Positions 315-46,605 of a DNA stretch of 48,063 nucleotides are shown here, in pieces. The notes below the pieces were generated by a model that made no database searches, was not told the DNA's origin, and saw only the letters and a program-made list of their open reading frames with translations. How positions within the stretch are numbered: the first letter of the stretch is position 1; every line of letters starts with the position of its first letter. The position numbers were made by a program, and so were the translations under genes. The stretch is taken from the NCBI GenBank assembly GCA_019057735.1, contig JAHLWV010000002.1:1-48063 (forward strand), in the 5' to 3' direction. The stretch is from Promethearchaeota archaeon (GTDB lineage Archaea > Asgardarchaeota > Lokiarchaeia > Sigynarchaeales > SOKP01).

Positions 315-1520
315 ATGAATACTATTTTAAGCTTAAACCTAAATCATCTAGATGGTCCATTTGATCATATTAAAGCATTAGCTTTTACTCGTTCGCTTTC
401 ATCCACGGGAGAAACTAAAGCAGCTCTCTATATTAAAAATGAGATGGATGAAGAAAATATTGATTGTATGATTGATTATTTTTCCTTTACAGGAGCTAAA
501 AGGCTCTTTATGAGGTTGACTTATATCATTTTATTTACTTATCTGATAGTTTTTCGTTTGTTATTAATTATATTTGCCTATTTTTCAATCAAGTATCTTT
601 TTCCACGCGTTCGAAATTACTCCCTAGTTGGAAAGGAGGATTCAAAAAACGTAATTGCAAAAATTAAAGCAGCTAAAAAGCAGAAGAAACGCCCAGTTGT
701 AATACTGTCAGCTCATTACGACACCTTTTCCACAAACCTTCCGTTTGGGGTACAAAAGGTTTTTTTCTTTCTATTTAGAATTATTCTTATCCCTTATGTC
801 ATTTTCGCTGTAATTATTGCAAATTTCTTATTTATTGCTGAAAGATCGACAGTAACAACTCAGATGATACTTTATTTTACGTTTATTGAATTTGCTATGA
901 CAACAATTATCTTTCTACTTATTTACGATAATAACCGCTCTAAGGGGTCTATTGATAACGCTAGTGGAGTTGCCATTTTAATTGAACTAGCAAAATTATT
1001 AAAGAGGAATCCCCTTGAAAACTATGATGTAATTGTATTATGGAGTGGAGCGGAAGAATGGGGTTTAAAAGGATCAATAGCATTTTGTAAGAAGCACCGC
1101 GATTACTTAAAAGAAAAATATGATTTAAATCGTTCTTTTAACATAAATATAGATATGATCGGTTCATATGTAGGACTTGAAACCAAACATTCATTACATT
1201 TAAGGCGTCGAAAAGAATGGTTAGACTTAAATAAAAAACTTGAAGAAACCGCAAATGAATTAAATATTCCAATAACAGTAGATACTAAAATCATTGGATC
1301 TAAAACAGATCATAAATCTTTTCTATCGTTTGCTAAAAAAACCAAATCATCATTTCAAGTTGCTAACTTTCATTCAAAAAAGGATTCTAAATTCATCCAT
1401 TCCTCTAAAGATACTCCCGATAAATGCGATCCCGAAATTTTGAATAGTTGTTTGGAAATCTGTTATGAAACAATAAGATCTATTGATTCAACGATTTTTT
1501 CTTCAAAAGAAATTAGATAA
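315..1520 (+). CDS. Membrane-embedded M28-family zinc aminopeptidase
   Basis: A 401-residue protein with the zinc-ligand set of family M28 (aminopeptidase Y/S type): H134-x-D136, D214 in a DNASG motif, the E247-E248 pair in SGAEEWG, D280, and a late H333. Family members remove N-terminal residues from peptides using two zinc ions. Unusual here are hydrophobic segments around residues 66-96, 149-175 and 185-204. The last two interrupt the peptidase fold between the first ligands and D214, so the enzyme is probably membrane-anchored. The ATG at 315 is preferred over an in-frame TTG at 294, which has no better ribosome binding site. The gene ends 18 nt inside the convergent PolD large-subunit gene. 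Confidence 0.85.
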   Translation: MNTILSLNLNHLDGPFDHIKALAFTRSLSSTGETKAALYIKNEMDEENIDCMIDYFSFTGAKRLFMRLTYIILFTYLIVFRLLLIIFAYFSIKYLFPRVRNYSLVGKEDSKNVIAKIKAAKKQKKRPVVILSAHYDTFSTNLPFGVQKVFFFLFRIILIPYVIFAVIIANFLFIAERSTVTTQMILYFTFIEFAMTTIIFLLIYDNNRSKGSIDNASGVAILIELAKLLKRNPLENYDVIVLWSGAEEWGLKGSIAFCKKHRDYLKEKYDLNRSFNINIDMIGSYVGLETKHSLHLRRRKEWLDLNKKLEETANELNIPITVDTKIIGSKTDHKSFLSFAKKTKSSFQVANFHSKKDSKFIHSSKDTPDKCDPEILNSCLEICYETIRSIDSTIFSSKEIR

Positions 1521-4500
1521 CTTCTGTTGTTTTATCTTAGGATTATTCGTAAGACTTTCAACGTATTCTTCTATTAGTTCCATCCGTTGTATAGTATATG
1601 CATCCAAATTAAAATTTCTGCTAAGTTTTAAGGCTTTTGGGATATATTTTTCAATTCCACCTCGATTAACCGTCAATATAACATTGCCTCCACACTTTGG
1701 GCACTTTCCCGCATTTGAGAGGGGTGGGCGTCTAAATTTCTCGTTACATTTCACGCATCTAAAAGTCTGTAAAGCATATTTTCTTAGGTTTCCCATTATA
1801 TCGGGATTAAAGTGTGTTGTTAAAATCTTCTCAGCAACCTTTTTATCGTTGACTGCTTTTATAATTTTAGCTAGGTGCAGTTGTGCGTTTATTTTATCTT
1901 CCATACTTGCATAGGTCTTATATGCTGTAGTAGTAGGACCGTTGTTAATATCGTTAGTTGGTATGTTGAAACCTAGGTTTTCGTACTGAGCTGATGTTCC
2001 TAACCGGCTTTTCACTAAACACATTTTCTTTTCTAGCTCAAATGGCATGAGATATTCTTGTGTTGCAGTATAAAACTCTAGAGGGTATTTAAACAATGTG
2101 TCGATATTATGAGCTTCACTATCGACTTCATTAGGGTCCAATAGAGAGGAAATCACTAAGGTAGCGTCCATTCTACCTCCTATTTTACTTGGTAAATAAT
2201 ACCTCGAGAAATTTAACAATGGATCTAAAAGAAGCATAATCCCATCTTCATCTCCATCGCAGTTTCTGCGTTTCGCTGCGTGCCAAAAGGGGTGGGCGTA
2301 AATCGATCGTGCGGGCGAAAAACCAATGATTCTACCGATAATTCCTGCGCTTGTATGAGGGGCAAGTCCTACAGCTAAATGGCCAATCAAATCTTCTCTC
2401 TTAGTAATATTGTAAAATTTGTCTAGATTATAGAACAATTCTAATTCATCGTCTATAAAGTTAGCAATTTTAATAAAGTACTGAGCACAATCGTCTGAAA
2501 GAATGACATCCTGCACTTTAAGCTCTAAGATCTGATTTTCATTATTTAATTCGTTAGCTTTATAGTCAAACTCATATCCCAATTCGATTAACCTACTTAC
2601 TGGAGTTGCAATTTCTTTAGGTTTGAAATGAGTTAATGGAATATCCGTAGCGTCGTATCGAATTTCCGCGGTTTTATACACTAACAACCCATTTTTAGCT
2701 CGGAGAATTCCCTTCATTAGCGGCTCTGGGACTTTAAATTTATTTGTCAATCCTAGAATTCCTTTAAATTTGTCCGGTATAGACATATTTAATGAGCTGA
2801 GTATTGTTTTTGAATAATTTTCTATATTAAAAGAAGCTTCCTTAGAGAAGTTTAATATGCCTCCGCATTGCTGGCATTTTTCTTCGTTTTTACTGTAATA
2901 TTTGTTACATTTTAGACATATTTTCTGAAATTCGGTATGAGTTCCACATTTAGGGCATAGATTAAATGGAGTAATGGACAAACAATTCGGACATTTCTTT
3001 CTACAAATATCAATTTTTATTCTCCCCAGCTTTATCGCCTTTTGTACTAATCTAGTATTACCAACTTTATCACTGAGAGGAAATAAACTTTGGACACCCT
3101 TCATACTTTTTCTTTCAGACTTCTCAGGGCGTCCCATACGAGTTCCCATATAATATGGGGCTTTATTTCTAATTTCAATGGGAGAAATGATCGAAAAATA
3201 ATTGAAGACATTGTCTTCATTTTTCATATTATCAACAATTTCCTTTTGATTTAAATTGAATATAGTTTCGTATATTTCTGTCGTGGTGTCATCAAGAATT
3301 AAGCAATCATCATTAAGTTCATGCGGAATAAATGCTTTTTCTAGAATTTCTTTAATGATAGTTCTATTTTTTAACTTTATTTTCTTAGTCTTATCATCGT
3401 AGCCAGTAGTCAAAGCTTCTCTTAAAGTGCTCAAATCACTTACGGAAACGTTTCCCCAATAATCGGTGTATTTAGGATGTAAGGGTATGGCAAATTTTTT
3501 TGCTAAATTGATCGCCTCTTTTGCCGAGGGAATGTTATTAAAAGGATCTTCGATAAATTTATGTGATTCGTTGTTTGATCCTAGTTCGCTTTTTAGCGCT
3601 TCCTCTAACTCTAAAGCCCACCATTCTTCCACATAACCAGATGGGACCAGTTTGTGGTTATTTTCAGAAAACTCCCCAAATCCAAAGAGAATATCTCCCA
3701 GAAAAAGAATTTCCTTTATATCTTGAAAGAGATCTTTTGCCTTTTTAGCGCTAGAAATCCTTACTACGCTTCCATTTTTCAGTTTTACTACAGGTGGTTC
3801 TATCGAGTTCACAGGGCAAATACTGGTGCTTTTTCCAGGTCTTTCAATTCTCAATTGTGTTCCAATTGCTATAAAACCATCTAAAACTGCCATAGTAGCA
3901 GGATGTAATCCCGCCGCAGCTAATCCTGTATTACGCGATCTTCCATAACGCATTCTATGGCCACCGATTTTGGAAGGATGGCTGAAAACGGGTCTACCTG
4001 CTATAATATCAGAAACATATTTAGAGTTAGGAGTGATTTTCATTGAAGATTTGCTCTCTAAATCGTCCTTTTTGATTACTTTTTCATCCTTTTGTGCTAT
4101 CTCTTTTAGCTTTCCAAGCCAATTCCAACCTTCTAATTTCATATTTTGAGCAATCTTCAGAAGTTTTGGCGCTTTAAGTAATATCCCATCGTTTAATACT
4201 AAACAAGCACCGCCTCTTATTTTATTTGTTTCGATTCTAGGTAATCCCCTAAACGCTGATACCTCTTCATCTTCAGTAGGGTCTCCATTTATCTCAACAG
4301 GTAGATGTTCTACGGCGTATCGAATCTCATCGTTCGATGAGGGATATTGCAAGTGAACTCTCCGATCGTATAATTTGACTTCTTCAACGAATCTTCCTAT
4401 CTCACCCTCAGTCGCCTCATATTTTGGAATATTAGATCGTTTCCTAACATAATCCGCAATCAGAACGCATAAAGCGGCTGTTGTACCTCCAGCAGCCCTA

Positions 4501-4940
4501 ATTGGCCCTGCAAAATATAAAGATAAGTATTTGTTGTTGTGCTGATCTTCTCGTATTAATATTTTTGATATCCCTTCAAGAGGGGCGCTAACGACACCCA
4601 TGGTTTTAATAGCAAGACCTACCCGGACCGCTCTTTCAACCCTTTCTTCTAAAGAGCTAATTTTTACGATTTTTTGATCTAGAATGTCAGAAACTACTTG
4701 AAACACAATCTCATCTTCTTTTTTCCCTTGGTGTTTCAAAGATCTTATCACATCAGCGACGCCCTCTGGTCCTACAAGTTTCTCTACTCTTCCTGCTAAA
4801 TCTTTAGCTTGAGGAGATTCTACAAAAGTTTCAGGATCAAGTCCTTTTTGGCGTGCTTTTTCTGCGATTTCGTAGCATGTATCAACATCTTTTTGCAACA
4901 GAGAAAAGTATTCTTCCATTTTTTTACTCATTTCTACCAT
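1503..4940 (-). CDS. polC: DNA polymerase D large subunit DP2
   Basis: A 1145-residue catalytic subunit of the archaeal replicative polymerase PolD. The N-terminal DP2 region includes a GGACLVLNDG-type motif. The active-site acidic motif NCDGDED lies near residues 892-899. A cysteine-rich stretch near residues 646-700 holds several CxxC pairs, and another zinc knuckle (CVKC, later CPKC) lies near the C-terminus. The last residues, QQKLSNFF, fit a PIP box (Q-x-x-L-x-x-F-F), which would dock the polymerase to the PCNA clamp. No intein is visible; the reading frame is continuous. The gene is divergent from the small-subunit gene across a 268-bp spacer. Nearby in-frame ATGs at 4931 and 4919 are alternative starts. 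Confidence 0.97.
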   Translation of the reverse strand: MVEMSKKMEEYFSLLQKDVDTCYEIAEKARQKGLDPETFVESPQAKDLAGRVEKLVGPEGVADVIRSLKHQGKKEDEIVFQVVSDILDQKIVKISSLEERVERAVRVGLAIKTMGVVSAPLEGISKILIREDQHNNKYLSLYFAGPIRAAGGTTAALCVLIADYVRKRSNIPKYEATEGEIGRFVEEVKLYDRRVHLQYPSSNDEIRYAVEHLPVEINGDPTEDEEVSAFRGLPRIETNKIRGGACLVLNDGILLKAPKLLKIAQNMKLEGWNWLGKLKEIAQKDEKVIKKDDLESKSSMKITPNSKYVSDIIAGRPVFSHPSKIGGHRMRYGRSRNTGLAAAGLHPATMAVLDGFIAIGTQLRIERPGKSTSICPVNSIEPPVVKLKNGSVVRISSAKKAKDLFQDIKEILFLGDILFGFGEFSENNHKLVPSGYVEEWWALELEEALKSELGSNNESHKFIEDPFNNIPSAKEAINLAKKFAIPLHPKYTDYWGNVSVSDLSTLREALTTGYDDKTKKIKLKNRTIIKEILEKAFIPHELNDDCLILDDTTTEIYETIFNLNQKEIVDNMKNEDNVFNYFSIISPIEIRNKAPYYMGTRMGRPEKSERKSMKGVQSLFPLSDKVGNTRLVQKAIKLGRIKIDICRKKCPNCLSITPFNLCPKCGTHTEFQKICLKCNKYYSKNEEKCQQCGGILNFSKEASFNIENYSKTILSSLNMSIPDKFKGILGLTNKFKVPEPLMKGILRAKNGLLVYKTAEIRYDATDIPLTHFKPKEIATPVSRLIELGYEFDYKANELNNENQILELKVQDVILSDDCAQYFIKIANFIDDELELFYNLDKFYNITKREDLIGHLAVGLAPHTSAGIIGRIIGFSPARSIYAHPFWHAAKRRNCDGDEDGIMLLLDPLLNFSRYYLPSKIGGRMDATLVISSLLDPNEVDSEAHNIDTLFKYPLEFYTATQEYLMPFELEKKMCLVKSRLGTSAQYENLGFNIPTNDINNGPTTTAYKTYASMEDKINAQLHLAKIIKAVNDKKVAEKILTTHFNPDIMGNLRKYALQTFRCVKCNEKFRRPPLSNAGKCPKCGGNVILTVNRGGIEKYIPKALKLSRNFNLDAYTIQRMELIEEYVESLTNNPKIKQQKLSNFF

Positions 4941-5208: not shown

Positions 5209-6984
5209 TTGGAAACCAGAATCGCAGAGCAGAAGAAGGTTATTCTAAATAAACTAATAAATTCAGGGATAAATATTTCTCCTACAATGCTAGATAACAT
5301 TCTGAGCATAAATAACCCGCTGAAAAACTTAAATCTCCTTATTAAAGAAACAAGTTTTATTCCCTCATTTAAGAGTCACTTAACGGAAACTGTAATAAAA
5401 GATATTTCAGACGAAAAACTTCAAAAAGTACTGAAACGTAACCTATCTAAAACCAATCATCTGCTATTACAAGAAGAAACCAACGCCTCCAAAAATTCTA
5501 ATCTTCAAAAAGAAGCAGTTACGAGCTCTTTAATTGATAAAAACCTTCCATCAGAATTTTCACCCGTTATTGAAAGCTATAAAACAGAATACAAAAGTCA
5601 AGAAACTTCCACTACATATCTCTTGCCCAAGCAAATTACTAAAAAGAAAACTACAAAAAAAACTCCAAGGTTCGAATCCACCAAATCTATTTTTACATTT
5701 AAACCTATTGCTAAAGAATACAAATCTAACTACGAAGTTATTCAAGATCCAACAAATAAATTATTTACTAACGGAAAGTATGATGATTTTTACGAATTAA
5801 CGCTTGACAAATATAATAAGCTTAAAAATCTCATCAGAAAAAGACCAGAAGTAAGTTCGGCTACTAACATCAATAACATATTTAGGATATCTAATAGTAT
5901 TGAAATATCAACGCTAGGTTTAGTAGATAAAATTCATCAAACAAAAAAAGGGAATTATCTCTTTACTTTGGAGGATTTAACTGGCAAAATTAGCGTATTG
6001 ATTCAAAATAATTCGGAGAACTTAGATTTCGTCAAAATTATAGAAAGAACTCTTAATGATCAGATGGTGTTCGTTAAGGGATTCTATAATCCTGGTGAAC
6101 ATGGGAGAAAAGGAATAATTTTTGCCTCCTACATCTCAAAAATAGATATTCCCACCAATTTTCAGCCTAATTTTTCACCCGATCCTCTCTCGATCGCTTT
6201 AATTTCTGATATTCACATTGGAAGTAAAGAGTTTGAGGAGGGTTTATTTACTAAATTTATTAATTTTTTAAATGGGAAAAGTAATAATAAACTTCTAAGA
6301 GAAAAGGCTGGAAGAATAAAGTATTTAGTCATTAATGGCGATCTAATTGATGGAATAGGAATATACCCAAACCAGCAAGAAGATCTCATTATCACAGACA
6401 TTTATAAGCAATTTAAAAAGGCTTCAGATATTCTTTTAGAAATTCCGGATTATATTAAAATATTTTTTGTATCTGGAAATCACGAACCAGTAAGAAATGC
6501 AATACCCCGACCCGCAGTACCAAAGAAATATTGCGAAGATTTAGTTAACATGGGGATCAAATGCTTAGGCAACCCTTCTTTAATTAAAACTCATAATGTC
6601 AACACACTTATATATCATGGGGAGAGCATGCACGATATTACTAGAATAATTCACGATTTAGATATAAATAAACCGATAGAGATCATGAAAGAATTTTTAA
6701 TAGGTAGACATCTTGCTCCAACATTTGGGGGGAAAACACAAATTGCTCCTGTAAACACTGATCACTTAATAGTAGAAAAGATTCCTGATATCTTTCATAC
6801 AGGACACGTACATATAAACGGGATAGGAAAATACAGGAACGTAACTCTCGTAAATTCTGGATGTTTTCAAGCTCAAACTGACTTTATGAAAAGTTTTGGG
6901 ATAATGCCTACTCCCGGTATAGTGCCAGTAATTGAATTGGATTCTTTAGATTTTTTAACACTCGATTTTAAAAAAATTAATTAA
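5209..6984 (+). CDS. polB: DNA polymerase D small subunit DP1 (3'-5' exonuclease)
   Basis: A 591-residue protein with the calcineurin-like phosphoesterase motifs of DP1: DIHIG (about residue 334), NGDLIDG (about 376), GNHEP (about 422) and GHVHINGIG (about 531). These residues bind the metal ions of the Mre11-like proofreading nuclease. An OB-fold region lies near residues 215-310. The first 200 residues are helical, then low-complexity and lysine-rich, consistent with a linker. The TTG start is supported by AAGGGAG at 5194-5200, 8 nt upstream. With DP2 it forms the PolD heterodimer. In Pyrococcus the polD genes also lie beside cdc6 at the origin, as they do here. Confidence 0.96.
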   Translation: METRIAEQKKVILNKLINSGINISPTMLDNILSINNPLKNLNLLIKETSFIPSFKSHLTETVIKDISDEKLQKVLKRNLSKTNHLLLQEETNASKNSNLQKEAVTSSLIDKNLPSEFSPVIESYKTEYKSQETSTTYLLPKQITKKKTTKKTPRFESTKSIFTFKPIAKEYKSNYEVIQDPTNKLFTNGKYDDFYELTLDKYNKLKNLIRKRPEVSSATNINNIFRISNSIEISTLGLVDKIHQTKKGNYLFTLEDLTGKISVLIQNNSENLDFVKIIERTLNDQMVFVKGFYNPGEHGRKGIIFASYISKIDIPTNFQPNFSPDPLSIALISDIHIGSKEFEEGLFTKFINFLNGKSNNKLLREKAGRIKYLVINGDLIDGIGIYPNQQEDLIITDIYKQFKKASDILLEIPDYIKIFFVSGNHEPVRNAIPRPAVPKKYCEDLVNMGIKCLGNPSLIKTHNVNTLIYHGESMHDITRIIHDLDINKPIEIMKEFLIGRHLAPTFGGKTQIAPVNTDHLIVEKIPDIFHTGHVHINGIGKYRNVTLVNSGCFQAQTDFMKSFGIMPTPGIVPVIELDSLDFLTLDFKKIN

Positions 6985-7018: not shown

Positions 7019-7702
7019 GTGAACTTTGCGATTCCGCGTGGCAATATTTCGGAGATGGTGTTACATATTTGGAAAATTATTGACCTTCCAAGTATTCAAC
7101 AAGATGATTTTTTACGCATCATTTCTTTTGAATTGTTTCTATTCTCGCCCAAAGAGGCAAAAAAGTTCATCAATGTGGCCATTCATAAAGGATATCTAAT
7201 TCCAGAAGGAGATGAGCAGATTAAATTATCAGAATCTTTAGCTCTCGAGTTAAACAAATGGCATGAAAAGAGAAAAATTCACATTTCAAGAAAAATTAAA
7301 GACGTCAAAGATTTCATCAATTTCAACAACGAATCTAAAAATAACGACGCAAATAAGTTCAAAATTTTATTAAAAGCTTTACTTGATAAAGGAACTATAA
7401 ATAGAGCTGTAGCAGAGTCTGATAGCGCATATAAATTTAGATTTCTCGATTCTGGTCAAAAAATTATTAAAGCTGAAGTTCAAGGTTCTCAGAAGATTCC
7501 GTATACCATTGAGATAAACATAAATGAAAAAATGATAAAACATAATTGCCATGATTTTCGGGCTAAAAGAGCAGAAAATAAAAAATTCTGTAAACACTTA
7601 GCGAAATTATTTCTCCTATTAAAGATACAAAACGCGGATTTAGCATCGAACTTCCTTGAGAGTATTACAAAAGAGATTAATAATTGGAATTTCCAAACTT
7701 AA
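7019..7702 (+). CDS. DUF2240-like archaeal protein with possible zinc-binding tail
   Basis: A 227-residue protein starting at GTG after a GGTGG ribosome binding site (about 7009-7013). The first 80 residues resemble the archaeal DUF2240 family, whose members have no established activity. The C-terminal third contains H-N-C-H-D-F followed 12 residues later by C-K-H, a spacing reminiscent of a SWIM-type zinc finger, which binds DNA or protein. It follows the DP1 gene by 34 nt and probably shares its transcript, so a role in replication or repair is plausible but inferred. It overlaps the end of the convergent orc1/cdc6 gene by 4 nt. Confidence 0.6.
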   Translation: MNFAIPRGNISEMVLHIWKIIDLPSIQQDDFLRIISFELFLFSPKEAKKFINVAIHKGYLIPEGDEQIKLSESLALELNKWHEKRKIHISRKIKDVKDFINFNNESKNNDANKFKILLKALLDKGTINRAVAESDSAYKFRFLDSGQKIIKAEVQGSQKIPYTIEININEKMIKHNCHDFRAKRAENKKFCKHLAKLFLLLKIQNADLASNFLESITKEINNWNFQT

Positions 7703-9024
7703 ATTAGCTTTTTAAACACCATATTCTTTATCTTAACTTTATCGGTTTGGAGTATTATCGGTTTATAATCCATTAATCGATATTCTTTTATTTTTTTAAC
7801 CTGAGATAAAACTCGTTCTATTAGGTTAAATTCGATGTCAAGTTTTACAATTTTCGTTCGACCATAATGACCCATCGATTTAGTTTCAGCAGTTATTAAT
7901 CCTGACAACGCTAATTCATTAATATAATCACTAATCCTTCTATGCGTCAATTGTTTCACATTTGGAATGATTTGTGCCAATTCTGAATGAACTTCATAAA
8001 TATCACCTGAAGTAATTATTATGTGTTCTTTAGTGTGTTTTGACAATAAAAAGACGGCAATCAAAGTTAGTTTTACTTGAAGAGGCATCGAAAAGATATA
8101 TTCAACGATGTGATCTTTATCTATATCTTTTTGAGCTTTTTCTACGTGATTTTCCATTATTTTTTTAGTTTGGTTGCGTTCAGCGATTTCTCCAGCTTTT
8201 CTTAACAATTGTAAAGCTTTTCTCGCGTCACCATGTTCTTTTGCTGCTAGACCAGCACATAGCTTTATAACTCCATCATCAATAACGCCTTCCTTAAAAG
8301 CTACTTCTGCTCTTAGTTTAAGAATGTCGTAGAGTTGGTTAGCGTCATATGGATGAAAGACAATTGGTTCTTCTTCCCCTAAATTAGATGTAACTCTCGC
8401 ATCGAGGAATTCCATGAATTTTAGTTTATTAGATATCCCGATAACACTCGTTCTACATTGATCTAAGTTTTCATTTAACCTCGTTAAGTTGTACAAGATT
8501 TCATTTCCTCCTTTTTTTTCAATTAAAATATCTATTTCATCTAATACAAGAAAGCATATGCTATCCTTGATATATTGGTCAAATAAACCTAGTAATTTCT
8601 TGAGAATTACGTCTTTAGGTAAACCTGTTGATGGTATTTTTTCTTTACCAACTATCGTATTGTAGATATGAGCTAAGATTCTATAAGGCGTAGATACGAC
8701 TGTACAATTAATATATACCCACCAGGGAGGTTTATTAGAGCAATGTTGTGCAAGTTTTTGTGAAATGTACCTTACAGTAGCCGTTTTACCCGTACCAGTC
8801 ATCCCATAACATAAGAAATTAGGAGGAACGTCACCTTTTAAGGCACAAGCAGTTATGCCCGCTATCTTCTCGATCTCTGAATTTCTATGAGGTAATTCAT
8901 CAGGTATAAACGACGGTTCGAGAGCTTCTCGATTTTTAAAAAGTTTCGGACCTTTTAAGTATTTCTTGTAAAAACTATCGATATTAAATGAATACATTCC
9001 TTTTTCATTATGGTTAGTCAACAC
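7699..9024 (-). CDS. cdc6: Orc1/Cdc6 replication initiator
   Basis: A 441-residue AAA+ origin-binding ATPase. Walker A is GMTGTGKT (residues 74-81), Walker B ends in LDEID (about 161-165), and sensor 1 lies near residue 200 in IGISN. A lid domain follows with the GDARKAL motif (sensor 2 arginine) typical of Orc1/Cdc6. The C-terminal 120 residues form a winged helix that recognises ORB elements. The start is GTG at 9024, with GGTGG about 9 nt upstream; ATG at residue 10 (8997) is an alternative. Candidate ORB-like sites lie just before the start, as is common for initiators next to their own origin. Confidence 0.95.
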   Translation of the reverse strand: MLTNHNEKGMYSFNIDSFYKKYLKGPKLFKNREALEPSFIPDELPHRNSEIEKIAGITACALKGDVPPNFLCYGMTGTGKTATVRYISQKLAQHCSNKPPWWVYINCTVVSTPYRILAHIYNTIVGKEKIPSTGLPKDVILKKLLGLFDQYIKDSICFLVLDEIDILIEKKGGNEILYNLTRLNENLDQCRTSVIGISNKLKFMEFLDARVTSNLGEEEPIVFHPYDANQLYDILKLRAEVAFKEGVIDDGVIKLCAGLAAKEHGDARKALQLLRKAGEIAERNQTKKIMENHVEKAQKDIDKDHIVEYIFSMPLQVKLTLIAVFLLSKHTKEHIIITSGDIYEVHSELAQIIPNVKQLTHRRISDYINELALSGLITAETKSMGHYGRTKIVKLDIEFNLIERVLSQVKKIKEYRLMDYKPIILQTDKVKIKNMVFKKLI

Positions 9025-11322: not shown

Positions 11323-12795
11323 TTATCCTTTTACAACACCAATTGGAACTAACCTTACAATTTTTTCCACAATGCCAAGATCTTGGCTCACTTGGACAAC
11401 TTGATCTATGTCTTTATATGCTCCAGGAGCTTCTTCCGCAATGACTTTAGGAGAAGCTGCTCTTATAGTAATTCCTTTATTTCTAAGATCTTCCCTGATA
11501 TTCGCGCCCCAATATTGTTTCGTTGCCTTGGTTCTTGACATTAAACGACCAGATCCATGAGCTGTAGAACCAAAAGAGAGATCCATTGCTTTTGGTCTCC
11601 CCACACATAAATACGAAGCAGTTCCCATAGTTCCAGGAATTAAAGCTGGTTGACCTATACTTTTATAATCACGGGGTATATCTGGATGCTCTGGTGGGAA
11701 GGCTCTAGTTGCCCCTTTTCTGTGGACATTTAATTTCATTTTTTTCCCGTCAACATCATGTTCCTCTATCTTTAAAATATTATGACAAACGCCATAAATC
11801 AATTTAAAATCCAGATCGTCCAAACTCCTTTTAAAATGTTTCTGGAAAGTCTCTCTTAGCCAATGCGTTATTAATTGGCGATTAGTAAACCCAAAATTTG
11901 CAGCACACGCCATAGTTTTCAAGTATTGTATTGCCTCCGGAGTATCGGCGGGTACACAAGCTAATTCACGATCTGGTACTTTTATTTTGTATTTTCTCAT
12001 TGCTTGCTCGATATTTCTAAGTGAATCTGTGCACACTTGATGACCAAGAGCTCGAGAACCAGTATGAACCATGATAGTTATTTGATCTTTATCAATTATT
12101 CCCATTTTCTTTGCCACTGACTCATTATAAATCTTGTCAACCTTTTGAATTTCGAGAAAATGGTTACCACTCCCTAATGAACCAAGTTGTTTTATTCCTC
12201 TTTGCTTTGCTTTTTGAGATACTAATTTTGAATCAGCATTTTTCAAAAAGCCGTTTTCTTCGCAATGCTCTAAATCCTCTTCTATAGCATAATCATTATC
12301 TAATGCCCAATTTAAACCGTTATCTAAAACATCATTTAATTCCGATGAGTTGATTTTTAATTTTCCTTTACTTCCTAATCCGGATGGTATATTTTTAAAA
12401 ATAGTGTCTAGCAAGTTAGGAATTGAACTTTCAATATCTTTAAGGTGAAGATTTGTTTTCAACAAATTTACACCACAGTTTATATCGTACCCTACACCAC
12501 CCGGGGAAACCATTCCAGAATAAGCGTCTGTTCCTGCTACACCCCCAATACAAAACCCATAACCTTGGTGTGCATCAGAGAGAACAATAGCGTGTTTTTG
12601 TATACCCGGGAGACAAGCTACATTACTAATTTGATCCAGAGTTCTATCGTTTTTAATTTTTTCTAAAATGTAATCGTTAGCATAAATATGGACAGGTACT
12701 CTCATTTGAAATTTTGCGATCTTTCCTTCCACTCGAGCCATTAAAGTTTTTTGAGGGATTTCGTAGATGTTTTCATCTATTTTATTCACATTCAT
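11323..12795 (-). CDS. rtcB: RNA-splicing ligase RtcB
   Basis: A 490-residue GTP-dependent ligase that joins 2',3'-cyclic phosphate and 5'-OH RNA ends, as made by the tRNA splicing endonuclease. Active-site features are present: SDAHQGYG (residues 73-80), SPGGVGYDINCGV with metal ligand C107, LGSGNHFLE, MVHTGSRALGH, and the guanylylated histidine in HRKGATRAFPP. The late STAHGSGR motif is also present. The ATG at 12795 gives MNVNKIDENIYEIP, the normal RtcB beginning, so the 31-residue extension to 12888 is unlikely. This is the ligase expected to seal exons of tRNA introns and of the proposed Elf1 intron at 23757-23786. Confidence 0.96.
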   Translation of the reverse strand: MNVNKIDENIYEIPQKTLMARVEGKIAKFQMRVPVHIYANDYILEKIKNDRTLDQISNVACLPGIQKHAIVLSDAHQGYGFCIGGVAGTDAYSGMVSPGGVGYDINCGVNLLKTNLHLKDIESSIPNLLDTIFKNIPSGLGSKGKLKINSSELNDVLDNGLNWALDNDYAIEEDLEHCEENGFLKNADSKLVSQKAKQRGIKQLGSLGSGNHFLEIQKVDKIYNESVAKKMGIIDKDQITIMVHTGSRALGHQVCTDSLRNIEQAMRKYKIKVPDRELACVPADTPEAIQYLKTMACAANFGFTNRQLITHWLRETFQKHFKRSLDDLDFKLIYGVCHNILKIEEHDVDGKKMKLNVHRKGATRAFPPEHPDIPRDYKSIGQPALIPGTMGTASYLCVGRPKAMDLSFGSTAHGSGRLMSRTKATKQYWGANIREDLRNKGITIRAASPKVIAEEAPGAYKDIDQVVQVSQDLGIVEKIVRLVPIGVVKG

Positions 12796-17732: not shown

Positions 17733-17835
17733 TAGTTAACTCACAAATCCCCGAGTAAGATGCAATTTAAGTGTGCTAAACTTAATTGTTAGGGTTAATT
17801 ATAAAAATTAAGGAATTTTGAGATTGAAGTGGCTA

Positions 17836-18909
17836 ATGAAAATTCTGGAAATTGATGAGAAAAATAAAAACATTTCATTAAGAATCGAAGATTTAAACGA
17901 TCTATGGACGCTCTATAATACTATTGCCAAAGACGACCAAGTAACTTCACGAACAAACCGCAGAATCGTATTAAAAGAAGGTTCTAAAGGAGAAAGAAAA
18001 CAAATGAAATTGAAACTAAAAGTTGATTCAATCTCATTCCACGAATTTTCAAATCGGCTAAGAGTGAAAGGAACTATCTTAGAAGGACCAGAGGATTTTG
18101 TTTCGTATGGGACATATCATACATTTAACATAGAACCAGGTCAAACGTTAACAATTGAAAAACCTAAGTGGTTAAAAAGCGAGATTAAGCGTCTTAGGAA
18201 ATCGCCTAGATTTCAAACTGATTTTGTCATGTTAATAGTAGCGATCGAAACAGGGTTGGCAACAATCGCGCTAATTACAAATTATAGTCATAATAGAATA
18301 GCCACGATAAAAAAAAACATCCCTGGCAAAAGATACGAACAGTCACATCGGAATAAAGCGTACGAAGAATTCTATAGAGATATTAGCAGCATAATCAAAG
18401 AAAAAACAGAAACTATCGACCTAAAAATCATTATAATATGTGGTCCGGGGAGCACTAAAGATCACTTAATACAATTTATCAAAGAAAAAGCCCAAATAAC
18501 GAGGTTACCCAAAATAGTTAGCATTCAAGCTACCTCTGGAACTGAAAGTGCTATTCTAGAAACTCTTAAATCAAAAGAACTCAAAGTCCTAAAGAAAAAT
18601 GTTAAAATTTTCCTTGAAACTGAGAAAATTGAGGAAATTTTTCAGCTGTTCAATACCAATTCAGATTTAATTGCAATTGGATTCGATGAAATCTCGAACG
18701 CCATTGAAAAAAGGGCGGTAAAAGAACTTTTTTGTGCTGATATTCTTATAAGGGGTGCATCAAAAAAACAAAAATTAAGAATAGAACAATTATTAAACGG
18801 TGTAGAATCTCTTGGAGGAGAAATTCATATTTTAAGTAGCGAACACCCAACAGGGCAACAAATAATTGATTTGGGATCTATCGTCGCTATTTTAAGATTT
18901 AAAATTTAA
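17836..18909 (+). CDS. pelA: Pelota (Dom34), ribosome rescue factor
   Basis: A 357-residue protein with the three-domain layout of archaeal pelota: an N-terminal Sm-like RNA-binding domain (about 1-130, starting MKILEIDEKNKNISLRIED), a central eRF1-like domain (about 131-260) without a GGQ motif, and a C-terminal eRF1_3 domain (about 261-357) containing IAIGFDEISNAI and ILSSEHPTGQQI. With aEF1A it dissociates ribosomes stalled on damaged or truncated mRNAs. ATG at 17836 follows AAGTGG and gives the usual N-terminus; the in-frame TTG-type start 6 codons earlier is unnecessary. Confidence 0.95.
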   Translation: MKILEIDEKNKNISLRIEDLNDLWTLYNTIAKDDQVTSRTNRRIVLKEGSKGERKQMKLKLKVDSISFHEFSNRLRVKGTILEGPEDFVSYGTYHTFNIEPGQTLTIEKPKWLKSEIKRLRKSPRFQTDFVMLIVAIETGLATIALITNYSHNRIATIKKNIPGKRYEQSHRNKAYEEFYRDISSIIKEKTETIDLKIIIICGPGSTKDHLIQFIKEKAQITRLPKIVSIQATSGTESAILETLKSKELKVLKKNVKIFLETEKIEEIFQLFNTNSDLIAIGFDEISNAIEKRAVKELFCADILIRGASKKQKLRIEQLLNGVESLGGEIHILSSEHPTGQQIIDLGSIVAILRFKI

Positions 18910-23249: not shown

Positions 23250-23861
23250 TTAGAACTCAAGAAAGCCTGGATCGTCAAAAATGTCTTCGATTTTTTTTGC
23301 CTTCTTCATGTCACTCTCGTCGTGCTCTGTAAATAAAGACTCTTCATCTGTTTTAATTCCTTTCTCTAACTCAAGAGAGTCTAGTTGAAGTAATGCATCC
23401 TTTCCTAACCTATTATATTCTTCCGCTCTAATTTTCCATTTATTAACTACATCAAGGTTGACATTATCTTCATCTTCTAAGGCCTCAGCAGCTTTAGCTT
23501 TGCAAATATCAGATAAAATAGAATATATTAGAACCAGTTCCCCCCATTCATTTTTCGGTTTAAGCTTCTCTAGACGTTTTTCTAATCTCTGAAGTTCTTG
23601 ATCGGCGTAATGAATATCGATAAAATCTCCAAAGGCATCAACGGGTTCTGATATTGAATTAACTAAAACTTCCTTTGTTAAACCACAATGACCACACTTC
23701 ACTGTAGCAATTGCGCTTTTCCGAATATTCTTAACCTTGATAGATTTTTCACCGCAATCCAAATTAAATGGTATATCCATTTAGTTATTTGGGCATGTGA
23801 AAATCTTTGGAACTCTCTTGACTCTTTTATATGATTGTTGTTTACGTTTCCTTCTTCCCAT
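23250..23861 (-). CDS. Elf1-type transcription elongation factor interrupted by a 30-nt intron
   Basis: Exon 1 (23861 to 23787) encodes MGRRKRKQQSYKRVKR...FTCPN, the basic tail and first zinc knuckle of Elf1-family factors. Exon 2 (23756 to 23250) continues with CGEKSIKV, CGHC, then SEPVDAFGDFID, as in Elf1. Unspliced, the frame hits TAA at 23783-23781. Removing 23786-23757 restores C23-P-N-C26 with C46 and C49 as zinc ligands, giving 193 residues. The gene could instead be called from ATG 23780, but that protein lacks one knuckle cysteine and the basic tail, and the TATA box at 23881-23892 fits a leaderless start at 23861. A long acidic, helical extension (about residues 85-193) is unusual for this family. 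Elf1 associates with RNA polymerase II in eukaryotes. Confidence 0.82.
23757..23786 (-). other. Predicted 30-nt bulge-helix-bulge intron in the Elf1-like mRNA
   Basis: In the pre-mRNA, exon bases CCAA (23792-23789) pair with intron bases TTGG (23762-23759), forming the 4-bp central helix. Bulge 1 is ATA (23788-23786) and bulge 2 is ATT (23758-23756); cutting each after its second base gives exactly the junctions that restore the reading frame. The inner helix pairs 23785-23777 with 23771-23763 (one C/A mismatch) around a 5-nt loop. The outer helix pairs 23803-23793 with 23755-23746 (one G/U pair, one bulged A). This is the canonical substrate of archaeal splicing endonuclease. Confidence 0.82.
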
Positions 23862-23880
23862 TATTCAAACACTAATTATT

Positions 23881-23892
23881 GTATATACTAAA
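23881..23892 (-). promoter_or_regulatory. TATA box of the Elf1-like gene
   Basis: TTTAGTATATAC on the minus strand lies 20-31 nt before the ATG at 23861, the right distance for a leaderless transcript starting at that ATG. It would be over 100 nt from the ATG at 23780, so it supports the upstream start. Confidence 0.5.
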
Positions 23893-24174
23893 TAAGAAAA
23901 ACATAACAAAAAAGTTTTGTGACAATATTTTATAGTAATCATAAAAAACATTTTTATTCTATGAGTTCTTAAATTGAGCTTTAATTTGATTATTAGTCTT
24001 GTAGCTTAATGAGTCCTTAATAAGGATTAATATTTTTAAATTTCATTAGTAAACTTATTCTCTACATAGTTTTAATACAAATCGAAAAATTTTTTAGGAA
24101 TGATACTTTCCTCTAATTACTCTTTTTCACAGATTTGTCTTAGCAGTTTTAAAAAAAATGAGTGGAATTTAGGT

Positions 24175-41819: not shown

Positions 41820-43043
41820 TTACCTCCTTTTTTTTTTACTTGTTTGTTTTTTATTATATCTAGTCTTAGTTTTGGGCTCACTTCTTTTTAGTGGAGGTTT
41901 AGGATATTTCTTCTCAATTTCCCTGATTTTTTCGTTTATCGCTTTTGAAAGCACATCGGCTACAAACTCACCTCCAAAATAATCTACTTTTGCTGAAATA
42001 CCAATTTTTCCAGATATAACTCGAGATATCTTCCCTCTATTCCAGGCCTTACTTCCACGGATTAGGTTCCACTGAAAAATTAATCCGTGTTTTGGGCGTT
42101 TTTCACCGGTTTTAAGGAACCTATATAAAGCCTTCTCAGCCCCCAATAGTTGAATTCTTGAAGCTGGCATGAATGCTAATTTTTTTAAACTTCCCGCTTT
42201 TGCTATTAATTTTGCTCCAATTAAACTTCCAACTAAAGCAAAAAGATTTGGAGCAATTTGTTCCATTACTAAATCTAAATGTCCCTCTAATTCATGAATA
42301 AATTCGTCCAAAGATAAAATTTCATTAGCGTATTTTATAATTATGTTAAGATCAATATCTGCTCCCATTGATTGGGAGGCTAAATTCTGCAACATTTTAA
42401 TTCTTTCTTCTTTAAAACCAAATTCTTGATCGATCTTATTATAGGTGAAATTATCACGATGTCCTAAAACTGAAATGAGTCTTGCTATAAGGATGTTATC
42501 TTCTATTATTTTATCAACTAGCTCTGGAAAATGTAAACCATACCATTCTCTCATGCGACTTGAGAATAAACTTAATGATTTTTTAAGAATATCCAAAGTT
42601 TCTATGATTTGAATGACTTCTACATCTCCCTTACTCCCAAATTGACTAATTTGTTCTTTGATTAGATGTTCTTCAACTCTCTTAAAGAAAGAGAGAATTT
42701 CGTCTCGTGTTTTCGTGATACCTATTTTTTTCAATTGATCACTCAAATTGAAGCGAAAATTTTTAAATTCTAAAGATAGTTTTTCAAAAGAAGTGTTATA
42801 TCCTAAATCCTGCAGTGTTATATCTTTTAGTTTTCTATTATCAAACACAAAATCATCAAAACCTGAACTGTTTAATTCATTCATAAAGTCTAAATACTCT
42901 GCTGATAGAGTATCGTTATTTAATGAATTATAAAAATTTACTGATTTTTGAATATCGTCTAAGAAATCTATATAATTAAGGAAATTTCCTCCATCATCAA
43001 TAGCAAAAATCCCTATTAAAGAATCAATAATATAACATCTCAT
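41820..43043 (-). CDS. nop5: Nop5 (Nop56/58-like) box C/D sRNP protein
   Basis: A 407-residue scaffold of the C/D methylation complex. The N-terminal domain (MRCYIIDSLIGIFAIDDGG) binds fibrillarin, a coiled coil (about 100-230) mediates dimerisation, and the Nop domain follows (LVGSLIGAKLIAKAGSLKKLAFMPASRIQLLGAEKALYRFL, about 266-310), binding L7Ae and the guide RNA. The lysine-rich tail is typical. ATG at 43043 gives the family N-terminus; the GTG four codons earlier is unlikely. It is the first gene of the nop5-flpA operon. Confidence 0.95.
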   Translation of the reverse strand: MRCYIIDSLIGIFAIDDGGNFLNYIDFLDDIQKSVNFYNSLNNDTLSAEYLDFMNELNSSGFDDFVFDNRKLKDITLQDLGYNTSFEKLSLEFKNFRFNLSDQLKKIGITKTRDEILSFFKRVEEHLIKEQISQFGSKGDVEVIQIIETLDILKKSLSLFSSRMREWYGLHFPELVDKIIEDNILIARLISVLGHRDNFTYNKIDQEFGFKEERIKMLQNLASQSMGADIDLNIIIKYANEILSLDEFIHELEGHLDLVMEQIAPNLFALVGSLIGAKLIAKAGSLKKLAFMPASRIQLLGAEKALYRFLKTGEKRPKHGLIFQWNLIRGSKAWNRGKISRVISGKIGISAKVDYFGGEFVADVLSKAINEKIREIEKKYPKPPLKRSEPKTKTRYNKKQTSKKKRR

Positions 43044-43113
43044 TATTCTATACACTTGCTTTAGTAAAATTTCTCAAATAATAATAATAATCATTTCTTA
43101 CATAATAATAGTA

Positions 43114-44976: not shown

Positions 44977-46605
44977 ATGAATGAGCTCACAAATTCTGAA
45001 ATAGAACGTAAAATCTCCAGAGAAATTATAGGTTACTTACTGAAAAATCCAGATACTCCTCGCCATAAAATTACAAACATTAAAGGAAAATTTGGAAAGA
45101 AATATAAGTATCATAAAGTTATAAAGAACGCTCAAATCCTGCATCATGCTACTGAAGAGGAATTACGCGTTATTACACAACTCTTAAAGAGGAGAATAAC
45201 AAGAACTATTTCAGGCGTATCTGTCATTGCAATAATGACAAAACCTCTTCCTTGTCCGGGAAAATGTGTTTATTGTCCAGGGCAAGATTCTCAACCTGAT
45301 CAAAAAGTAGCTCAATCATATACTGGCCATGAACCGGCTGCGATGAGATCAATCCACAATAATTATGATGCTTATAAGCAAGTACAAAGCAGAATTGGAG
45401 ATTTAGAAGCGATTGGCCACGTTGTTGATAAAATCGAGATTGTTTGCATGGGGGGCACATTCTTATCTACTCCTATTGATTATCAAGAAGACTTTATCAA
45501 AGGAGCATACGAAGGAGTAATTGGGAGTAGAGTTATTTCGTTAGAAGCAGCCAAAAAATTAGCGGAGAATTCAAAAAGAAGACTAATAGGATTGACAATT
45601 GAAACTCGGCCTGACTATTGTACAGAGCCTTATGTAGACATGATGCTCAATTATGGAGCAACAAGAGTAGAAATTGGAATACAAACCGTGTTGGATGATG
45701 TGTACAAAAAAGTGAATAGAGGGCATACTACCCAAGACAGTATTGATGCTATAAGGATTGCAAAAGACGCTGGTTTAAAAATAAATGCTCATATGATGCC
45801 AAATCTACCCGGCTCTGACTACTCTAAGGATTTAGAAATGTTTGATGTTCTTTTTTCTTCTCCCGATTACCGCCCCGATATGTTGAAAATTTATCCTTGC
45901 GTGGTAATTAAAGGAACCGTATTATATGATTGGTGGAAAGAAGGCGAATTTACCCCATATTCATTAGATGAATTGATTGAATTAATATCAAATGTAAAAC
46001 AAAAAATTCCCTCTTATGTGAGAATACAGAGAATTATGAGGGACATACCTGCGTTTTTAATTGAAGCAGGCTGTAAAAAGAGTAATTTAAGACAATTAAT
46101 ACACAAAAGATTAGAAGAACTTAATTCCAAATGTAATTGCATAAGATGTCGAGAATATGGAATTGCTAAAAAATCTAAAATTATTGATGAAATTATATTT
46201 GAAGATATTAAATTATATCGTCACGATTATGAAGCTTCTAATGGACAAGAAACATTTTTATCTTACGAAAATAAAAAGGAAGATTATCTCGTAGCATACT
46301 TGAGATTAAGAAAACCTTCAGAATACGCTCATAGACCCGAGCTAAATGATGGAAATACGATGATAGTAAGGGAAGTTAAAGTCGTAGGCGAATTAGTTCC
46401 TAAAGATCAAAAACCACATAGGATATCGCAACTTCAACATCGCGGATTTGGTAAACTATTAATGAAAAACGCTGAAAAAATTGCGTATGAAGATTTCGAC
46501 TCTAAAAAATTAGCTGTAATAAGTGGTATAGGCGTAAAATCTTGGTTTTATGAGCTTGGTTATAATCCTGATGGAAGTTATGTCTCAAAAACCTTAAATG
46601 ATTAA
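44977..46605 (+). CDS. elp3: Elp3, tRNA U34 carboxymethyl-forming enzyme
   Basis: A 542-residue enzyme that modifies U34 in tRNA anticodons (cm5U). The radical SAM part has C93-x3-C97-x2-C100 (PCPGKCVYCPG), followed by IVCMGGTF and IGLTIETRPDYC. A zinc knuckle CNCIRCREYG lies near residue 388. The C-terminal GNAT domain (about 420-542) includes QLQHRGFGKLLMKNAE for acetyl-CoA binding. In archaea Elp3 works alone, without other Elongator subunits. Length and domain order are normal. Confidence 0.96.
   Translation: MNELTNSEIERKISREIIGYLLKNPDTPRHKITNIKGKFGKKYKYHKVIKNAQILHHATEEELRVITQLLKRRITRTISGVSVIAIMTKPLPCPGKCVYCPGQDSQPDQKVAQSYTGHEPAAMRSIHNNYDAYKQVQSRIGDLEAIGHVVDKIEIVCMGGTFLSTPIDYQEDFIKGAYEGVIGSRVISLEAAKKLAENSKRRLIGLTIETRPDYCTEPYVDMMLNYGATRVEIGIQTVLDDVYKKVNRGHTTQDSIDAIRIAKDAGLKINAHMMPNLPGSDYSKDLEMFDVLFSSPDYRPDMLKIYPCVVIKGTVLYDWWKEGEFTPYSLDELIELISNVKQKIPSYVRIQRIMRDIPAFLIEAGCKKSNLRQLIHKRLEELNSKCNCIRCREYGIAKKSKIIDEIIFEDIKLYRHDYEASNGQETFLSYENKKEDYLVAYLRLRKPSEYAHRPELNDGNTMIVREVKVVGELVPKDQKPHRISQLQHRGFGKLLMKNAEKIAYEDFDSKKLAVISGIGVKSWFYELGYNPDGSYVSKTLND

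What the first reader, a model, noticed from the sequence alone, without database searches (positions are those of the whole stretch)
23746..23861. A 30-nt bulge-helix-bulge intron inside a protein-coding gene (Elf1-like factor)
The reading frame begins with a typical basic Elf1 N-terminus and FTCPN, hits TAA two codons later, and resumes in the same frame with CGEKSIKV. Deleting 23786-23757 makes C-P-N-C, the expected zinc knuckle. The same junctions fall between base 2 and base 3 of two 3-nt bulges (ATA and ATT) flanking a 4-bp helix CCAA/TTGG. A 7-bp plus one-pair inner stem and a long outer stem complete the fold. Protein logic and RNA structure independently give the same 30-nt boundaries. 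BHB introns are routine in archaeal tRNA genes, but the pre-mRNA example I know well is crenarchaeal cbf5. I cannot check whether one in Elf1 of Asgard archaea has been reported.
Basis: partly seen in the sequence, partly recalled or inferred. Interest (0 to 1): 0.95.

Follow-up and report, generated by a model that had tools for sequence, protein, structure and literature searches.

The report
Tiny intron inside archaeal Elf1 gene
In this Lokiarchaeon the gene for the transcription factor Elf1 is interrupted by a 30-letter insert with a stop codon; its RNA is predicted to fold into the shape that the archaeal tRNA-splicing enzyme cuts, so the insert is likely spliced out of the messenger RNA, and similar inserts interrupt four other genes in related genomes, which would make messenger splicing in archaea more common than the one or two cases known so far.

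Summary
Confirmed and enlarged. Window 23786-23757 (minus strand) is a 30-nt insert with an in-frame stop between CPN and CGE of an Elf1 gene (PF05129). Removing it gives an intact 193-residue protein, and the same borders are those of a canonical bulge-helix-bulge (BHB) motif. In 29 of 51 Elf1 copies compared within one lokiarchaeal family the same site carries an insert of 28, 30, 31 or 32 nt; 22 lack it. All 28 distinct inserts keep at least 3 of 4 central pairs in the exact BHB register (no other register exceeds 18 of 28); inner-stem pairs covary; exon codons pair across the insert better than recoded exons mainly where it is present. Splicing-endonuclease genes occur in 55 of 55 relatives searched, two or more in 49. 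The ligase RtcB is in 51 of 55, but three of the four without it carry such inserts, so the joining step is the weakest link. Similar inserts occur in RNase HII, phosphofructokinase, an alpha/beta hydrolase and, in two genomes, rtcB itself. Known precedent: cbf5 of Crenarchaeota; ten full-text searches gave no Asgard report. Not shown: any spliced RNA. A second survey region gave no further intron.

The parts
23787..23861 (-). elf1 exon 1 (25 codons, ATG at 23861, ends CPN)
   Evidence: Translation; under purifying selection among intron-bearing copies: mean pairwise dN 0.11, dS 1.13 over the 347 of 406 pairs kept (dS above 0 and at most 3)
23757..23786 (-). 30-nt predicted BHB intron with an in-frame TAA
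   Evidence: Absent from 22 of 51 related copies, inserts of 28-32 nt at the same site in the others
23250..23756 (-). elf1 exon 2 (168 codons and stop)
   Evidence: second half of the Elf1 zinc ribbon (CGHC) and a C-terminal extension
23786..23788 (-). 5' bulge ATA; predicted cut between 23787 and 23786
   Evidence: Position 2/3 of the bulge equals the protein-defined border
23756..23758 (-). 3' bulge ATT; predicted cut between 23757 and 23756
   Evidence: As above
23789..23792 (-). central helix, 5' strand CCAA
   Evidence: 4/4 pairs here; at least 3/4 in 28 of 28 distinct copies in this register, at most 18 of 28 in any of 62 others
23759..23762 (-). central helix, 3' strand TTGG
   Evidence: 2 of 4 pairs change on both sides, one of them with the proline wobble base (A-U, G-C, U-A); 81% of cells paired
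23763..23785 (-). inner stem-loop of the intron
   Evidence: Helices 3 and 4: each of the 7 scored pairs shows changes on both sides
23793..23802 (-). outer helix, exon 1 strand
   Evidence: Pairs with exon 2 at 23747-23755; 97% of cells paired but no two-sided change; stronger than synonymous recodings in 23 of 29 intron-bearing copies
23747..23755 (-). outer helix, exon 2 strand
11323..12795 (-). rtcB, RNA-splicing ligase, about 10 kb from elf1; predicted joiner of the exons (start at the conserved MNVNK; the mechanical ORF runs to 12888)
   Evidence: PF01139 E 8.4e-170; uninterrupted at the site where L108 and L109 carry a 29-nt BHB insert

Best explanation
The 30 nt at 23786-23757 are most likely a bulge-helix-bulge intron of the elf1 pre-mRNA, predicted to be cut in its two 3-nt bulges by the tRNA-splicing endonuclease EndA and closed by an RNA ligase, probably RtcB, which would restore the 193-residue Elf1 protein. 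Shown by sequence: the interruption, the restored reading frame, the BHB geometry, its conservation and covariation in relatives, exon codons that pair across the intron better than needed for the protein, and absence of the insert from many relatives. Inferred: that the RNA is spliced in the cell, that EndA (two genes in most relatives, read in one genome as a catalytic and a His-less subunit) makes both cuts, and, least surely, that RtcB joins the exons. The Elf1 intron belongs to a wider lokiarchaeal set: 29-33-nt inserts of similar build lie in signature motifs of RNase HII, phosphofructokinase, an alpha/beta hydrolase and, in two genomes, rtcB. No regulatory role is claimed; repeated absence in close relatives suggests that the intron is dispensable.
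For: Frame: removal restores a 192-194-residue ORF in 28 of 29 interrupted copies; the other, L049, is cut off by the contig end (28, 30, 31 or 32 nt, so 20 of 29 inserts are not multiples of 3). Register: at least 3/4 central pairs in 28 of 28 distinct copies at the exact register, at most 18 of 28 in any of 62 other registers; 91 of 112 central pairs against a permuted mean of 78.3, none of 5,000 permutations as high. Covariation: 92.5% of cells paired against 43-46% when slid and 81.5% when shuffled, 9 pairs with two-sided changes, score 0.313 against 0.127 in shuffles, 0 of 500 as high; the structure tested was drawn from these sequences. Exon selection: the exon-exon outer helix is stronger than synonymous recodings in intron-bearing copies (mean z -2.6; 23 of 29 at p <= 0.05) but hardly in intronless ones (mean z -0.47; 5 of 22); Mann-Whitney p 1.2e-5, indicative only since rows are related. 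Gain and loss: 10 changes on the Elf1 tree, 8 forced by well-supported branches, including close pairs with and without it (L027/L042, L028/L050, L017/L036; L008/L026 with lower support); L008 and L026 have identical bases for 21 nt before and 18 nt after the site. Machinery: EndA family in 55 of 55 genomes searched, two or more genes in 49; RtcB in 51 of 55; in G003 one EndA copy keeps the His and Lys and matches PDB 3p1z over residues 30-200, its FGSPLGISKPR stretch without a gap; the other copy has Ser in place of the His. Other genes: rnhB, PFK, hydrolase, rtcB. tRNA genes with predicted introns lie in the same genomes.
Against: No spliced RNA was seen. The BHB alone is not significant in the window. 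In the five 32-nt copies of one clade (L019, L020, L021, L024, L026) and in L036 the outer helix is no better than recoded exons, and four or five intronless copies have a strong one. Outside the window, 20 of 29 central helices (all copies counted) have one mismatch; for the PFK inserts the central helix (60% paired) is no better than in a neighbouring register (65%), and for rnhB and rtcB the outer helix does not peak at the true register. RtcB: four genomes have no match, again none with a second query; three of them carry inserts (G034 in elf1 and rnhB; G028 and G036 in rnhB), and the Pab1020-type ligase family was not found in seven genomes either, so the joiner there is unknown. The window's own assembly is not held, so its EndA was not seen. 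A second survey region gave no convincing intron, and cbf5 shows no stop in any of the 54 genomes over the cut-off (53 near full length, G002 cut by a contig end).
Confidence: 0.88

Rival explanations
1. No splicing: the working protein starts at an ATG inside the insert (23780) and lacks the first 25 residues, as gene callers assume; the upstream ORF is a relic.
For: Public gene calls of 176 aa begin with residues that the insert encodes (P0054, P0055, P0058, P0105). 15 of 29 inserts hold an ATG in frame with exon 2, two more a TTG only.
Against: Exon 1 is under purifying selection in intron-bearing copies (dN 0.11, dS 1.13). 12 of 29 inserts have no in-frame ATG, GTG or TTG. The protein would lose half of its zinc site. 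It does not explain BHB covariation or the exon codon bias.
Confidence: 0.03
2. The insert stays in the mRNA and ribosomes hop over it (translational bypassing, as in T4 gene 60 or the byp elements of yeast mitochondria; both recalled).
For: Short structured inserts inside genes are also the look of byp elements (recalled). In 10 of 29 Elf1 copies the codon before the insert equals its last triplet.
Against: In 19 of 29 copies, the window included (AAT/GAT), take-off and landing triplets differ. Bypassing predicts neither two 3-nt bulges at fixed 4-bp spacing nor pairing between exons.
Confidence: 0.03
3. Spliced, but with another joiner: EndA cuts the BHB and a ligase other than RtcB, not identified here, seals the exons, at least in some lineages.
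For: G028, G034 and G036 carry inserts in elf1 or rnhB and give no RtcB match with two queries; G028 and G036 belong to one genus (g5).
Against: RtcB is in 51 of 55 genomes and in the window; the assemblies without it are draft (79-99% complete); the Pab1020-type RNA ligase family gave no match in 7 genomes, G028, G034, G036 and G040 among them.
Confidence: 0.12
4. Decaying gene or assembly error.
For: All relatives read are draft assemblies. One intronless copy (L016) is itself broken at residue 120.
Against: 29 copies from many assemblies carry different inserts at one site with conserved pairing and intact exons; 20 inserts are not multiples of 3 yet the downstream exon is conserved.
Confidence: 0.01

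Closest known systems
cbf5 pre-mRNA BHB intron of Crenarchaeota (Watanabe 2002, not seen, cited in others; Yokobori 2009, PMC2738675)
   Same: BHB at the exon borders of a protein-coding gene, predicted cuts between bulge bases 2 and 3, lineage-specific gain and loss, hetero-oligomeric EndA (abstract and first of two parts of Results read).
   Different: Other phylum and genes; here at least five unrelated genes; canonical geometry in the window, where five of the seven newly examined cbf5 cases are described as unconventional; cbf5 itself shows no stop in the 54 lokiarchaeal genomes over the cut-off. cbf5 splicing is backed by cDNA, this is not.
BHB intron in the 5' UTR of HVO_1309, Haloferax volcanii (PMC7714728)
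   Same: EndA-processed BHB in an mRNA (passages read).
   Different: Lies outside the coding region; it does not interrupt a reading frame.
Archaeal tRNA and rRNA BHB introns
   Same: Same motif and expected endonuclease.
   Different: Structural RNA, not a reading frame under codon constraint.
Translational bypassing elements (recalled)
   Same: Short structured inserts in coding sequence.
   Different: Matched take-off and landing codons missing in 19 of 29 copies; exon-exon pairing and BHB geometry not expected.

Membership tests
Archaeal pre-mRNA BHB intron | Two 3-nt bulges separated by a 4-bp helix at the borders | tested here: met
   Window 4/4 pairs; at least 3/4 in 28 of 28 distinct Elf1 copies in that register, at most 18 of 28 in others
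Archaeal pre-mRNA BHB intron | Removal between bulge bases 2 and 3 restores a conserved protein | tested here: met
   Elf1 zinc ribbon CPNC restored, full ORF
Archaeal pre-mRNA BHB intron | Pairing conserved by compensatory change | tested here: met
   9 of 20 pairs with two-sided changes (7 inner, 2 central, none outer), 57 cells
Archaeal pre-mRNA BHB intron | Host encodes the splicing endonuclease, of hetero-oligomeric type | tested here: met
   In relatives: 55 of 55, two or more genes in 49; catalytic and His-less copies read in G003 only. Own assembly not held
Archaeal pre-mRNA BHB intron | RNA ligase RtcB present | tested here: inconclusive
   In the window and 51 of 55 relatives, but G028, G034 and G036 have inserts and no RtcB match
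Archaeal pre-mRNA BHB intron | Spliced transcript and EndA cleavage | not testable with these tools
   No RNA data or enzyme available
Translational bypassing element | Matching take-off and landing codons | tested here: not met
   Differ in 19 of 29 copies, window included
Group I or group II intron | Ribozyme core recognised by Rfam | tested here: not met
   Only a tRNA reaches the gathering score in the window; 30 nt is too short

The most novel reading that the evidence does not exclude
Lokiarchaea run a spliceosome-free mRNA-splicing programme: a standing set of about 30-nt BHB introns seated in the catalytic or zinc-binding codons of unrelated genes (elf1, rnhB, PFK, an alpha/beta hydrolase), gained and lost repeatedly, with exon codons selected to build the splice site, and reaching in two genera the gene of the splicing ligase RtcB itself, whose product would then be needed to make its own mRNA.
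Probability: 0.72. Interest if true: 0.93.

Novelty: new member of a known kind. Interest (0 to 1): 0.87.

Why it matters
BHB introns in archaeal mRNA have rested on cbf5 of Crenarchaeota and one 5' UTR case (as stated in PMC7714728, passages). This puts them in Asgard archaea, the group that includes the closest archaeal relatives of eukaryotes, in at least five genes, and suggests selection on exon codons for splicing. It gives a concrete list of testable introns, explains truncated gene calls in public databases, and warns that automatic annotation misses split genes in these genomes. Two open questions become sharp: how a ligase whose own mRNA needs joining is kept in supply (rtcB inserts), and what joins the exons in genomes where RtcB was not found.

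Tried and rejected
Internal start, bypassing, pseudogene and ribozyme introns were considered; see rivals and membership test. cbf5 was tested as the expected host gene and shows no stop in the 54 genomes over the cut-off. RNAalifold's own consensus recovered most of the outer stem and the inner stems but left the central 4-bp helix open; I relied on the named-structure count. A first PFK scan used too narrow a motif and gave wrong insert lengths for L161-L163; it was redone. In one search the motif script could not classify 7 of 33 rnhB loci (one, L131, does not hold the gene), 12 of 30 hydrolase, 5 of 27 PFK and 2 of 11 rtcB loci (fragments). Of the unclassified rnhB loci, L199 was later read as interrupted and L194 as uninterrupted; L197, L200, L201 and L205, each with one in-frame stop, stay uncounted. 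L128/L206, L119/L239, L139/L227, L120/L180 and L118/L156 are the same copies fetched twice. Other survey hits, with BHB scores of 16 or less and poor or short matches, were dropped as chance. The second survey, round the EndA gene (398 kb with overlaps, 289 kb comparable), gave no convincing intron, against four non-elf1 copies of three genes in 537 kb comparable in the first; an intron count per genome is therefore not well constrained and I give none. EndA, RtcB, cbf5, PFK, rnhB and hydrolase were sought in 55 of the 147 genomes (53 of the 65 of family f1, and two of the same order). L037 and L056 were not parsed by the start-codon script but read uninterrupted. Literature: ten searches gave no Asgard mRNA BHB intron; the library lacks most subscription papers and bioRxiv.

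Full report
What is in the window. On the minus strand, 23861-23787 encodes MGRRKRKQQSYKRVKRVPKIFTCPN; the second codon after that is TAA, and the same frame resumes at 23756 with CGEKSIKV and runs to a stop at 23250. The joined 193-residue product is an Elf1-like zinc-ribbon protein (PF05129, 9.9e-19). The insert 23786-23757 is 30 nt. Taken alone the fold is unremarkable: z = -2.1 against shuffles, and 114 placements in the window meet an equally strict BHB criterion.

The relatives decide. The window's own assembly is not held, so I searched relatives of the nearest genome; 115 of 147 have an Elf1 match. Named records of the close copies are Candidatus Lokiarchaeota or Lokiarchaeia. Of f1, the family of the nearest genome, 51 copies with a readable start, the window included, were compared: 29 are interrupted at exactly this codon border, 22 are not. 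Six further f1 copies (L057-L060 of a diverged type, L037 and L056) are also uninterrupted, as are the ten loci read from other families (L061-L070). Inserts are 28 (1 copy), 30 (9), 31 (13) or 32 nt (6), so 20 of 29 also shift the frame; removal restores 192-194 residues in 28 of 29, the last (L049) being cut by a contig end. Insert sequences differ greatly between clades.

The BHB is conserved as structure. With borders set by the protein, 28 of 28 distinct copies have at least 3 of 4 central pairs; in 62 neighbouring registers the best reaches 18 of 28. On an alignment of the 28 copies, 92.5% of cells are paired against 43-46% when the partners slide by 1 to 3 columns; 9 of 20 pairs change on both sides (7 inner, 2 central, none outer); the covariation score is 0.313 against a shuffled mean of 0.127. 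The central helix has 81% of cells paired. L009 (30 nt) and L018 (28 nt), sisters on the tree, differ by one base lost on each side of the hairpin.

Exon codons appear selected for the intron. The outer helix pairs exon 1 with exon 2. Recoding both flanks with synonymous codons shows that intron-bearing copies pair better than their protein requires (mean z -2.6; 23 of 29 at p <= 0.05), intronless copies hardly so (mean z -0.47; 5 of 22), though they encode nearly the same peptide. Exceptions are five 32-nt copies and L036. Rows are related, so the p value of 1.2e-5 is indicative. Exon 1 is itself under purifying selection in intron-bearing copies, which argues against a relic upstream ORF.

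Gain and loss. The Elf1 tree needs 10 changes of presence, at least 8 of them forced by well-supported branches. Close pairs differ in having the insert (L027/L042, L028/L050, L017/L036, all starred; L008/L026 at 83/85). L008 and L026 are identical for 21 nt before and 18 nt after the site. If these are losses, a simple source is a DNA copy of spliced mRNA (inference).

Machinery. EndA-family genes occur in 55 of 55 genomes searched, two or more in 49; RtcB in 51 of 55. In G003 one EndA copy (L244) keeps the His and Lys of the active site (roles recalled) and matches PDB entry 3p1z, whose source I recall as Aeropyrum pernix, with the FGSPLGISKPR stretch aligned without a gap; that stretch holds the lysine that I recall as Lys44 of the crenarchaeal loop. 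The other copy (L245) has Ser in place of the His. Broad specificity of two-subunit EndA and the role of a loop lysine are in PMC6379350 (passages read). The window holds rtcB about 10 kb from elf1. Against RtcB as the joiner everywhere: G028, G034, G036 and G040 gave no match with the family model or with the window's protein; G034 has inserts in elf1 and rnhB, G028 and G036 in rnhB; the Pab1020-type ligase model found nothing in seven genomes. These are draft assemblies (79-99% complete), but two of them share a genus, so the joining step there is open.

More genes. The RtcB search showed two genomes with the gene split. L108 (G002) and L109 (G032, another genus) carry 29-nt inserts inside GGVGY/DINCG with 4/4 central and 8/8 inner pairs. 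A survey of 0.77 Mb of contigs round elf1 in five genomes (537 kb comparable) gave three more genes: RNase HII (30 nt in GIDEAG/RG), an alpha/beta hydrolase (33 nt in HPHPQ/YGG) and phosphofructokinase (30 nt in GGD/DT), all with stops if retained and with homologs lacking the insert (Pfam names; that these are signature motifs is partly recalled). Reading loci of these genes by motif: rnhB interrupted in 10 of 33 loci (9 distinct copies), uninterrupted in 16, unclassified in 7; hydrolase 9, 9 and 12 of 30; PFK 6, 16 and 5 of 27; rtcB 2, 7 and 2 of 11; four more rnhB copies (L199, L270-L272) were then read as interrupted at the same site. Central and inner pairing peak at the true register for rnhB and rtcB, outer pairing does not; the hydrolase fits a neighbouring register for the central helix equally well; PFK has full inner and outer stems, but its central helix (60% paired) is no better than in the next register (65%) and is a relaxed motif at best. 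A second survey of 0.40 Mb round the EndA gene (289 kb comparable) gave none, and cbf5 shows no stop in the 54 genomes over the cut-off. The inserts are real but unevenly spread, and I do not estimate a number per genome.

What is known. BHB introns of archaeal pre-mRNA: cbf5 in Crenarchaeota, with cDNA support (PMC2738675; abstract and first of two parts of Results read). A 2020 paper states that only this example was known besides its own 5' UTR case (PMC7714728; passages read); a 2025 EndA paper lists the cbf5 papers in its references (PMC12397907; passages read). Ten searches gave no report for Asgard archaea. Public gene calls of 176 aa begin with residues encoded by the intron (P0054, P0055, P0058, P0105), while uninterrupted relatives up to 96% identical are 193 aa (P0002; 120 of 498 hits were listed).

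Verdict. By nearly every feature testable here this is an archaeal pre-mRNA BHB intron; splicing in the cell is inferred and the ligase is the least certain part. As a kind it is known; the host gene, the phylum, the number of genes, the exon codon bias and the rtcB case are, as far as I could find, new.

Noticed in passing
L108:1-2101 (G002) and L109:1-2101 (G032): rtcB, the ligase gene for this kind of splicing, itself carries a 29-nt BHB insert inside its GGVGYDINCG motif in two genera.
   Followed up: partly
G028, G036 (genus g5), G034 (g3), G040 (g4); L270-L272: No RtcB match with two queries although three of these genomes carry BHB-like inserts in elf1 or rnhB.
   Followed up: partly
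L161 (G031, genus g8), L162 and L163 (G016, G024, genus g1): The 30-nt PFK inserts are identical in sequence between genomes placed in different genera, while other PFK inserts differ; transfer between genera or misplacement of a genome is possible.
   Followed up: no
L034 and L051 (both G065): One assembly holds an uninterrupted and an interrupted elf1 copy; paralogs or mixed strains (9% contamination stated).
   Followed up: no
L004, L025, L029, L032: Intronless elf1 copies whose exon flanks still pair much better than recoded exons (z -2.2 to -3.1), as if the intron was lost recently and the codons remain as a trace.
   Followed up: no
window 23861-23910: A TATA-like stretch (tttagtatatac) lies some 25-40 nt upstream of the elf1 ATG, so the transcript may be nearly leaderless and the intron hairpin near its 5' end. 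Read by eye only.
   Followed up: no
L117, L122, L125, L132, L136, L142, L147, L152: ARAGORN with introns allowed predicts tRNA genes with short introns in the same genomes; tRNA-Thr (cgt) has one in G003 and G035 but not in G007. Such predictions are rough.
   Followed up: partly
L016 (G012): An intronless elf1 copy that stops at residue 120; broken gene or assembly error.
   Followed up: no
window 1-48063: Gene neighbourhood rich in information processing: tRNA-Leu 133-217, PolD DP2 1503-4940, a small-subunit-like phosphoesterase 5209-6984, Cdc6/Orc 7699-9024, rtcB 11323-12795, eRF1 17818-18909, Nop5/56 41820-43055, Elp3-like 44977-46605.
   Followed up: no
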